Shown: in pieces, positions 20,448 through 23,290 of the stretch
How positions within the stretch are numbered: the first letter of the stretch is position 1
Layout of the letters: each line of letters starts with the position of its first letter
Origin: an uncultured Spirochaetales bacterium
Lineage (GTDB): Bacteria > Spirochaetota > Spirochaetia > Sphaerochaetales > Sphaerochaetaceae
Direction: 5' to 3'
Assembly: GCA_947305945.1 (NCBI GenBank)
Contig: CAMZFA010000003.1
Span: 1-37,999, forward strand
DNA: 37,999 nucleotides
Position numbers and translations under genes: made by a program
Notes under the pieces: model-generated
Seen by the model: the letters and a program-made list of their open reading frames with translations, nothing else
Databases searched by the model: none
What the model was told of the DNA's origin: nothing

Positions 20448-21239
20448 TTGAATCTGAAAACAATTAAAAAACCGCTGATCGAAATGATTACAGACATTAA
20501 AAATGACCTTGTATCCATAAAAGAAAGGAAAAAGCCTGACGGCTTTGCAATTATAAAAACTCAAAACGGCACTTCAAGATACTACTTTCAGAAATCAGGA
20601 AACATACAATACATCAAAACAGGAGATGAGGAGAAGCTCAGGAAATATTGTCAGGAGAGGTACTACAGGAAGCTGGAGCAGGAGCTGCCGGGGCAGATTG
20701 CAAAGCTGGAAAAGATTCAAAAGCTCCTGAACAGTGTCAAAGATGAGCAGGATATCTATGCAGAGCTGCCTGAGGCAATCAGAAAATATGCGGTTCCTGA
20801 AACCTGCAGTCAGAAAAAGATGATTGATGACTTTTACGAGGAGGGGCGGTTCGCAGAGCATAACACATATCCCAAAAGCGAGAAGTATGAAACCGAGAGG
20901 GGTGAGATTGTCAGGTCAAAGAGCGAGCTGATCATAGCCAACATGCTGCACAGCATGAATGTGCCGTATGACTATGAAAGGATTTACTATCTGAGAGACG
21001 GGAGCTGGAGGTACCCGGATTTTACAATTCTGAACACCGGGACGGGCAAAGAGCTTTTATGGGAGCATCTGGGCAGGATGGATGATGAGAAATACAGGAA
21101 CAACAATCTGCAGAAGATTGAAGAATACCAGAAAAACGGGGTTTATCCGGGGGAGAATCTGATTCTGACGTTTGAGACAAATGAAAAGCCCATCAGTACT
21201 GCGCACCTCAGGGCTTTGATTGAACACTGTTTCAAATGA
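20448..21239 (+). CDS. Stand-alone PD-(D/E)XK-like nuclease with N-terminal coiled-coil-like region
   Basis: TTG start preceded by AGGAG; RSKSELIIANML...YDYER...RYPDFTILN...LLWEHLGRMDDEKYRNNNLQKIEEYQKNGVYPGENLILTFET pattern. Confidence 0.65.
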   Translation: MNLKTIKKPLIEMITDIKNDLVSIKERKKPDGFAIIKTQNGTSRYYFQKSGNIQYIKTGDEEKLRKYCQERYYRKLEQELPGQIAKLEKIQKLLNSVKDEQDIYAELPEAIRKYAVPETCSQKKMIDDFYEEGRFAEHNTYPKSEKYETERGEIVRSKSELIIANMLHSMNVPYDYERIYYLRDGSWRYPDFTILNTGTGKELLWEHLGRMDDEKYRNNNLQKIEEYQKNGVYPGENLILTFETNEKPISTAHLRALIEHCFK

Positions 21240-22719
21240 ACCGGCCGTAGAGCCTTATGTATTCCCTCAGCCTGTCTGTCATCCAGGGCCGGAGGGCACC
21301 GGGTTCCATCCTCCAGGACCAGTTGAAAGTGCCCACGGTTGAGGGGGCATTCATTCTGGCGCTGTCATCCAGCCCCAGAAGGTCCTGGACGGGGAAGATG
21401 ACGGTGTTTGCGCTGGAGGCAAGGAGACTGCGCATGACCTGCCAGACAACCTCCTCGTCGGAGCACTGGAAGTAGCGGCGCACCATGTCACGGTACTGGT
21501 CGGAAAGACTGTTGAACCAGCCGCGGGTGGTCTGGTTGTCATGGGTGCCCGAATAGGCCACGCAGTTCTTGGGATAATTGTGCGGCAGGTAGGGGTTGCC
21601 CGTGGCAATCCAGCCGTCGCGCAGTTCGAAAGCAAACTGGACAATCTTCATTCCGGGCCAGCCGGTTTTGTCCAGAAGCTCAACAACCTGATCTGTGATT
21701 ATGCCCAGGTCCTCGGCAATTATGGAGTACTTCCTGAAGTGTTTCAGGAGGTTCATGCCGGGGCCGGGAAGCCAGCTGCCCTCTTTTGCGGTGCTGCTGC
21801 CGGAGGGAACCTCCCAGTAGCTTTCAAAGCCGCGGAAGTGGTCGATACGGACCACATCAACCATGCTCAGCATGTGTTTCATGCGGCTCTTCCACCAGGC
21901 GTAGTCATCTTTTGCGTGGACGTCCCAGTCGTAGACGGGGTTGCCCCAGAGCTGACCGTCGGGGGAGAAAGCATCCGGCGGGACACCGGCACCGGCTTTC
22001 TGGTTGCCGTCCTTGTCAAACTTGAACAGGCTGCGGTTCACCCATACATCCACGCTGTCCGAGGCAGCGAAGATGGGGATATCGCCGACGATGGAGATTC
22101 CGACAGAGGAGGCATACTCATGGAGGGCCTTCCACTGGGCGAAGAAGAAGTACTGGAGCGCCTTCCAGATTGCAATCTGGGGGGCCAGCTTTTTCCTGTA
22201 GGATTCAAGGGTTCTTGCGTTTCTGTTCTTGAGGCCGCTCTCCCAGACGAACCATCTGGAGTCCTGCTTTTCGTCCACGAGGGCGCGGTAGAGCGCGTAG
22301 TCTTCAAGCCAGAAGGCCTCTTCCTTGCAGAAGGCGGCAAACTGTCTGTCCTTGGGGTTGAGCTTCAGGAATTCTGCGGCGGCCTGCTTGAGGAGGGGCA
22401 GTTTGAAGCCGTAGACTGAGTTGTAGTCAACGTTGCCGTACTGCGAGTTCTCCGGGGGTGTGAAGACGGTTCTGATGCCCGGGATGGATCTGAGGTCTAT
22501 GAGGTACTCATTGCCTGCAAAGCAGGAACGCGATGCGTAGGGCGAATCCCCGTATCCCGTGGGGCCCAGAGGAAGTATCTGCCAGAGTCTGACTCCGGCG
22601 TCCGAGGCGGTTCTCAGGAATTCACGTGCCTCGGCTCCCAGATCGCCGATTCCGAACGGTGACGGGAATGAGGTGGGATGGATGAGCAATCCGCATTTTC
22701 TGATGTTTTTTTCTGTCAT
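21232..22719 (-). CDS. malQ: 4-alpha-glucanotransferase (amylomaltase)
   Basis: GLLIHPTSFPSPFGIGDLG, WQILPLGPTGYGDSPYAS, VRIDHFRGFESYWEVP, AEDLGIIT, GTHDNQTTRGW; start refined to MTEKN (22719). Confidence 0.95.
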   Translation of the reverse strand: MTEKNIRKCGLLIHPTSFPSPFGIGDLGAEAREFLRTASDAGVRLWQILPLGPTGYGDSPYASRSCFAGNEYLIDLRSIPGIRTVFTPPENSQYGNVDYNSVYGFKLPLLKQAAAEFLKLNPKDRQFAAFCKEEAFWLEDYALYRALVDEKQDSRWFVWESGLKNRNARTLESYRKKLAPQIAIWKALQYFFFAQWKALHEYASSVGISIVGDIPIFAASDSVDVWVNRSLFKFDKDGNQKAGAGVPPDAFSPDGQLWGNPVYDWDVHAKDDYAWWKSRMKHMLSMVDVVRIDHFRGFESYWEVPSGSSTAKEGSWLPGPGMNLLKHFRKYSIIAEDLGIITDQVVELLDKTGWPGMKIVQFAFELRDGWIATGNPYLPHNYPKNCVAYSGTHDNQTTRGWFNSLSDQYRDMVRRYFQCSDEEVVWQVMRSLLASSANTVIFPVQDLLGLDDSARMNAPSTVGTFNWSWRMEPGALRPWMTDRLREYIRLYGRFI

Positions 22720-22725
22720 GGCTGA

Positions 22726-22754
22726 ACTATAACCCATAGTACTTCTTTTTTCCA
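22726..22754 (-). promoter_or_regulatory. Putative malQ promoter TGGAAA-17-TATAGT, 6 nt before the ATG
   Basis: Minus strand ...gtggaaaaaagaagtactatgggtTATAGTtcagccATGACAG. Confidence 0.5.
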
Positions 22755-22760
22755 CTCTTC

Positions 22761-22789
22761 TTGTTTCAGCGCTTTTTTCGGTGTATAAT
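22761..22789 (+). promoter_or_regulatory. Putative carD promoter TTGTTT-17-TATAAT, 6 nt before the ATG
   Basis: Direct reading TTGTTTcagcgcttttttcggtgTATAATggggccATG. Confidence 0.7.
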
Positions 22790-22795
22790 GGGGCC

Positions 22796-23290
22796 ATGAA
22801 TCCGGAAACAGAATTTCATATCGGCGACCACGTTGTTTACCCTCTTCAGGGTGTTGGCGTAATCAGAGACATCCGCGAACGGACTATCAAAGACCAGACA
22901 AAAACCTTCTATGTCATCTATCTGGACATCTCGGACATGACCGTCAGCATTCCTGTTGACAGGGCAAAGGAGATAGGCATTAGAGGGCTGGTCCAGCCGG
23001 CGGAGGCAAAGGCCGCACTGGAATCAATTTCCGACAAATACGAACCTGTGAATGTGGACTGGAAGGCCCGCTACCAGATGAACGTGAACCTTGTGAAGGA
23101 AGGTTCGATCATGTCCATCTCACAGGTGGTTCAGGGACTGTACCACAGGAGCAAGATCAAGGAACTGCCGGTTCAGGAGCGCAAGCTTTATGACAATGCG
23201 CTCAGGCTCCTCATTGACGAGTGCGCCTTCTCGCTGGACAGGAATCCCGAAGATGTTGAAAAAGAAATCTTCACACGTCTGGAGAAATAA
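22796..23290 (+). CDS. CarD-like transcriptional regulator (CarD/CdnL family)
   Basis: FHIGDHVVYPLQGVGVIRDI N-terminal RID domain, helical C-terminus. Confidence 0.9.
   Translation: MNPETEFHIGDHVVYPLQGVGVIRDIRERTIKDQTKTFYVIYLDISDMTVSIPVDRAKEIGIRGLVQPAEAKAALESISDKYEPVNVDWKARYQMNVNLVKEGSIMSISQVVQGLYHRSKIKELPVQERKLYDNALRLLIDECAFSLDRNPEDVEKEIFTRLEK

What the first reader, a model, noticed from the sequence alone, without database searches (positions are those of the whole stretch)
22719..22796. Divergent pair of apparently leaderless genes: carD (+) and malQ (-)
Seen: TTGTTT-17-TATAAT-GGGGCC-ATG for carD and TGGAAA-17-TATAGT-TCAGCC-ATG for malQ. Both -10 boxes sit exactly 6 nt before the start codon, so the predicted +1 falls on or next to the A of ATG. 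Neither has a usable Shine-Dalgarno, whereas most neighbouring genes do (AGGAGG, GGAG, AAAGAGG). Known: CarD-family proteins act on RNA polymerase at promoters. Inference: these transcripts lack leaders and may respond differently to ribosome or CarD status.
Basis: partly seen in the sequence, partly recalled or inferred. Interest (0 to 1): 0.62.

Follow-up and report, generated by a model that had tools for sequence, protein, structure and literature searches.

The report
Leaderless carD and malQ genes
In this spirochaete two back-to-back genes, the polymerase-regulator gene carD and the starch-enzyme gene malQ, have promoters placed so that the messenger RNA should begin exactly at the start codon; for carD this is kept across almost the whole class Spirochaetia, so it is real and probably selected, although leaderless genes as such are already known.

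Summary
In detail: carD is TTGTTT-17-TATAAT-GGGGCC-ATG, malQ is TGGAAA-17-TATAGT-TCAGCC-ATG, and neither has a Shine-Dalgarno (SD) site. The window alone gives weak statistics; comparative data make leaderless transcription the best reading. In 727 kb of this genome the TATAAT-to-ATG distance spikes at 6-7 nt (33 and 17 genes, against 1-2 at 0-5 nt). These 50 genes mostly lack SD sites (8/50; 69% of others have one), and 98% have a pyrimidine before the ATG (48% in SD-led genes), as expected if the A of ATG is +1. Leaderless genes thus form a class, about 8% of genes. Nearly all Spirochaetia carD loci keep a -10 box 6-10 nt before the only usable ATG; where the protein gained a long lysine-rich N-terminal tail, the box usually sits at the new start. 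Spirochaetes outside the class, and the presumed Borreliaceae, mostly have SD-led carD. malQ is leaderless-like in 48 of 64 adjacent loci. A link to CarD or ribosome status is untested; a G-14/AT-rich-spacer signature hints at autoregulation. No 5' ends were mapped. Leaderless bacterial genes are a known kind.

The parts
22796..23290 (+). carD (CdnL-type CarD), 164 aa, predicted leaderless
   Evidence: Pfam CarD_TRCF_RID and CarD_C; only ATG before the conserved core
22761..22766 (+). carD -35-like hexamer TTGTTT
   Evidence: Direct reading; TTGTT conserved at 75-100% per base in 54 Sphaerochaetaceae carD promoters
22784..22789 (+). carD -10 box TATAAT
   Evidence: Direct reading; box at 6-10 nt before the ATG in nearly all of 75 single-ATG carD loci
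22790..22795 (+). carD discriminator GGGGCC; predicted +1 is A22796
   Evidence: 6-nt spacing and pyrimidine at -1 (73/75 carD loci)
21232..22719 (-). malQ (GH77 4-alpha-glucanotransferase), 495 aa, predicted leaderless
   Evidence: Pfam GH77; homologues align from the 22719 start
22749..22754 (-). malQ -35-like hexamer TGGAAA
   Evidence: Promoter scan, 9 of 12 matches
22726..22731 (-). malQ -10 box TATAGT
   Evidence: Direct reading and scan; box at 6-8 nt in 48 of 64 adjacent malQ loci
22720..22725 (-). malQ discriminator TCAGCC; predicted +1 is the A of ATG (22719)
   Evidence: Direct reading

Best explanation
carD and malQ are transcribed divergently from two sigma-70-type promoters packed back to back in the 76 bp between their start codons. 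Each -10 box is set so that RNA polymerase starts at the A of the ATG. The mRNAs are leaderless (5'-AUG, no SD) and are presumably translated by the leaderless route, in which the ribosome recognises the 5'-terminal AUG. They belong to a class of about 8% of genes in this Sphaerochaetaceae genome, and for carD the coupling of promoter to start codon is old and maintained across the class Spirochaetia. Shown by sequence: promoter anatomy, spacing class, lack of SD, pyrimidine at -1, conservation. Inferred: the actual 5' ends, the translation route, and competition between the two promoters, whose expected polymerase footprints overlap.
For: Spacing histogram in 601 genes spikes at 6-7 nt (33, 17) over a background of 1-2. 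SD in only 8/50 of these genes against 357/518 others. Pyrimidine at -1 in 49/50 against 48% in SD-led genes, p=2e-13, a property not used to choose the genes. carD: 54 of 75 single-ATG loci have the box at exactly 6 nt and nearly all the rest at 7-10; -35 and -10 conserved with a fixed 17-nt spacer. Where carD has a 130-395 aa N-terminal tail, the far-upstream ATG again has a box at 6-9 nt in five of seven cases. malQ: 48 of 64 adjacent loci.
Against: No transcript 5' ends are available. Part of the carD set has 8-10 nt between box and ATG, which may mean leaders of 1-4 nt. Other promoters may also transcribe these genes. malQ is not constant: 16 of 64 loci lack the box. Related sequences are not independent.
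Confidence: 0.88

Rival explanations
1. The box-ATG spacing is a chance alignment in an AT-rich intergenic region; the real transcripts have ordinary leaders made from other promoters.
For: Within the window the pattern is only slightly above chance, and the simple promoter scan reports only the malQ promoter.
Against: Spacing spike, pyrimidine at -1, missing SD sites and deep conservation. Without the promoter-adjacent start neither gene has a ribosome-binding site.
Confidence: 0.04
2. Translation starts elsewhere: GTG 22781 for carD or ATG 22797 for malQ, so the mRNAs have leaders or different N-termini.
For: Both codons are in frame and the longest ORFs begin there.
Against: GTG 22781 overlaps the -10 region and has no SD. 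In 75 of 93 non-redundant carD loci only one ATG is possible and it nearly always follows the box. Most malQ homologues align from about residue 1-7 of the 22719 start.
Confidence: 0.03
3. carD is leaderless and its promoter is autoregulated by CarD through core-promoter features (G at -14 and an AT-rich spacer), as reported for Rhodobacter; leaderlessness is incidental or a partner of this control. This adds to the best explanation rather than replacing it.
For: G-14 in 71-76% and AT at -21..-17 of 0.96 / 0.78 in carD promoters, against 41% and 0.65 in other leaderless-like genes. PMC8820732 summarises Rhodobacter CarD repression through the extended -10 and T-rich spacer; PMC10232725 shows CarD repressing promoters with stable open complexes.
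Against: In the window the GG/T-tract pattern is shifted by one base and there is no TG at -15/-14. Phylogenetic non-independence inflates the counts. The discriminator varies. No regulation data exist for these organisms.
Confidence: 0.3

Closest known systems
Leaderless genes of bacteria (TA-led genes, PMC3160421; Deinococcus-Thermus -10-adjacent ORFs, PMC12340547; Mycobacterium tuberculosis, PMC3898074)
   Same: -10 box about 6 nt before the ATG, no SD, a distinct class in the genome.
   Different: Different phylum; here one regulatory gene keeps the arrangement through a whole class and in a divergent pair. PMC3160421 lists Spirochaetes as 6 of 18 genomes with a mean of 3.9% leaderless genes.
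Leptospira interrogans leaderless mRNAs (dRNA-seq, PMC5243855)
   Same: Same phylum; about 440 mRNAs with leaders under 10 nt, experimentally mapped.
   Different: The genomes of family f36, which I take to be Leptospiraceae, have carD starts without an adjacent -10 box; the paper does not mention CarD.
Rhodobacter sphaeroides carD promoter (Henry 2021, cited through PMC8820732 and PMC10232725)
   Same: carD promoter with extended -10 / G-14 and a T-rich spacer in most spirochaete relatives.
   Different: Autoregulation not tested here; the signature is shifted by one base in the window; the original paper was not readable.
Borrelia burgdorferi LtpA (PMC6037790)
   Same: Spirochaete CarD/CdnL protein that supports 16S rRNA expression.
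   Different: LtpA lacks the conserved tryptophan (the window protein has a W in DWKARYQ); the f19 carD, which I take to be Borreliaceae, has an SD-like GAGG before its start.

Membership tests
Leaderless (5'-AUG) bacterial genes | -10 box about 6 nt before the start codon, more than chance gives | tested here: met
Leaderless (5'-AUG) bacterial genes | No Shine-Dalgarno site | tested here: met
Leaderless (5'-AUG) bacterial genes | Transcription start mapped at or within a few nt of the ATG | not testable with these tools
   No RNA data; pyrimidine at -1 is indirect support
Leaderless (5'-AUG) bacterial genes | Protein made from that 5'-terminal AUG | not testable with these tools
   Needs N-terminal proteomics or ribosome profiling
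CarD/CdnL RNA-polymerase-binding proteins | RNA-polymerase-interacting domain plus CarD C-terminal domain | tested here: met
   PF02559 and PF21095 above cut-off
GH77 4-alpha-glucanotransferase (MalQ) | Full-length GH77 domain | tested here: met
   PF02446 over residues 13-475, E 5e-167
CarD-autoregulated promoter (Rhodobacter type) | Extended -10 and T-rich adjacent spacer, with repression by CarD | tested here: inconclusive
   Sequence signature enriched across spirochaete carD promoters but shifted in the window; repression not testable here

The most novel reading that the evidence does not exclude
In Spirochaetia, carD has long been locked to a leaderless, core-promoter-autoregulated arrangement: CarD tunes its own open complex at a promoter whose first transcribed base is the start codon, so CarD supply depends on polymerase kinetics and 5'-AUG translation and bypasses SD-based control, with malQ competing from the other side in lineages that keep the pair.
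Probability: 0.22. Interest if true: 0.62.

Novelty: new member of a known kind. Interest (0 to 1): 0.45.

Why it matters
Leaderless genes are usually studied in Actinobacteria and Deinococcus-Thermus. Here one regulatory gene keeps the arrangement through a whole spirochaete class, even when its start codon has moved by hundreds of bases, which suggests selection on leaderlessness itself or on the promoter-start coupling. Because CarD acts on RNA polymerase at promoters, its own promoter is a natural place to test feedback between CarD, open-complex stability and leaderless translation. It also bears on annotation: about 8% of genes in this genome sample have a -10 box, not an SD, marking their start.

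Tried and rejected
Helical phasing of the two start codons (spacings near 64, 75, 85, 106, 117, 128): not significant when neighbouring spacings are treated as blocks (p=0.19). A conserved operator upstream of the carD -35: none visible in the profile. A conserved discriminator as a CarD-response signal: it varies, mean GC 0.51. A pooled figure of 22% leaderless genes was inflated because every pooled locus contains carD and usually malQ; corrected to 8%. Pfam found no domain in the N-terminal tails of carD. Henry 2021 is not held; it is cited through two other papers.

Full report
Place and identity. The window is contig 3 of a 1.33-Mb, 78%-complete genome. Its closest named relatives are Sphaerochaetaceae / Spirochaetales MAGs, many from gut and rumen. 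The two genes are carD (CdnL-type: RID plus CarD_C domains) and a GH77 4-alpha-glucanotransferase, malQ. carD is followed by ispD, ispF and an IF-2B-family gene on the same strand.

The observation. Both promoters are as described: carD TTGTTT-17-TATAAT-GGGGCC-ATG at 22796 and malQ TGGAAA-17-TATAGT-TCAGCC-ATG at 22719. Neither start has a usable SD. Inside the window the pattern alone is barely above chance (6 matches against 2.6 expected, reached by 4 of 100 shuffles), so the test must come from the genome and from relatives.

A class in this genome. In 726,528 bases (601 called genes), the number of genes with a TATAAT-like box at distance d before an ATG is 2,2,1,1,1,2 for d=0-5, then 33, 17, 7 and 4 for d=6-9, then 2-5 for d=10-14. 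The excess is about 50 genes, or 8%. Only 8 of the 50 genes at d=6-7 have an SD of at least 4 nt, against 357 of 518 others. The base before the ATG is a pyrimidine in 49 of 50, against 48% in SD-led genes (p=2e-13). RNA polymerase prefers a pyrimidine at -1 and a purine at +1 (general knowledge), so this is what a start at the A of ATG predicts, and it was not used to pick the genes. -35-like matches (at least 4 of 6) are also commoner than at SD-led genes (25 of 50 against 13%). The class is present in G020 (7%), weaker in G004 and G023 (about 3-4%) and marginal in G060. All six orthologues of these genes found in the G020 sample kept a box at 6-8 nt, and two in G023 did.

carD across the phylum. 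In 75 non-redundant carD loci with only one possible ATG, a box lies at exactly 6 nt in 54 and at 7-10 nt in nearly all others, against 0-1 at most other distances; the base at -1 is a pyrimidine in 73 of 75. In Sphaerochaetaceae the promoter profile is cTTGTT-17-TATAAT; in several other families of the class the -35 is TTGAC-like. In several lineages carD encodes a lysine/alanine-rich N-terminal tail of 130-395 residues. In L330, L332, L333, L334 and L337 the far-upstream ATG again has a box at 6-9 nt; L335 is ambiguous and L336 showed none. The start codon moved and the promoter coupling stayed. Outside the class most carD genes examined have SD-led starts or no adjacent box, and so does the f19 genome that I take to be Borreliaceae; L309, outside the class, is an exception with TATAAT 8 nt before its ATG. 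The trait thus looks typical of Spirochaetia without the Borrelia lineage.

malQ. The divergent carD-malQ pair is kept in many genera. Of 64 distinct loci with the pair, malQ has a box at 6-8 nt in 48, and in all of those carD is leaderless-like too, with 59-226 nt between the two ATGs. malQ is less constant than carD; the rumen subgroup around L037-L045 lacks the box. In the window the predicted start sites are 77 bp apart, so two polymerases could hardly occupy both promoters at once (inference from the usual footprint of about -55 to +20).

Mechanism. Most likely the sigma-70 holoenzyme starts both RNAs on the start codon and the 5'-AUG is translated by the leaderless route. One hint: carD promoters carry G-14 (71-76%, against 41% in other leaderless-like genes) and an AT-rich stretch at -21 to -17 (0.96 in Sphaerochaetaceae, 0.78 elsewhere in the class, 0.65 in other leaderless-like genes). 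PMC8820732 summarises that Rhodobacter CarD represses its own promoter through the extended -10 and a T-rich spacer, and PMC10232725 shows CarD repressing promoters with stable open complexes. In the window the signature is shifted by one base, and related sequences inflate such counts, so I give autoregulation 0.3.

Known or new. Leaderless genes are known in bacteria and in spirochaetes (PMC3160421: 6 of 18 genomes, mean 3.9%; PMC5243855: about 440 short-leader mRNAs in Leptospira). New here, as far as the sources searched show, are the class-wide leaderless carD, its persistence when the start codon moves, and the divergent leaderless pair. I file it as a new member of a known kind.

Limits.

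Noticed in passing
L330, L332, L333, L334, L337 (also L335, L336): carD in several Spirochaetia lineages encodes a 130-395 residue lysine/alanine-rich, histone-H1-like N-terminal tail with no Pfam domain. Myxococcus CarD has a basic HMGA-like DNA-binding region, but at the other end.
   Followed up: partly
window 3348 (-) and 16721 (-): Two more leaderless-like genes in the window: a protein that looks like peptide deformylase (TATTAT-7 nt-ATG) and a 164-aa protein (TAAAAT-6 nt-ATG).
   Followed up: partly
carD and malQ promoters of relatives, position -17 relative to the predicted start: A T at -17 is kept in 93% of Sphaerochaetaceae carD and 87% of malQ promoters, but in only 45% of other leaderless-like genes. 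Unexplained.
   Followed up: partly
window 22795-22798: The carD start lies in a CATG palindrome, so an in-frame malQ ATG (22797) sits on the opposite strand across it; probably chance.
   Followed up: no
L134 (G001:C39): The malQ copy next to carD in a same-genus genome has an in-frame TGA inside the match: a pseudogene or an assembly error.
   Followed up: no
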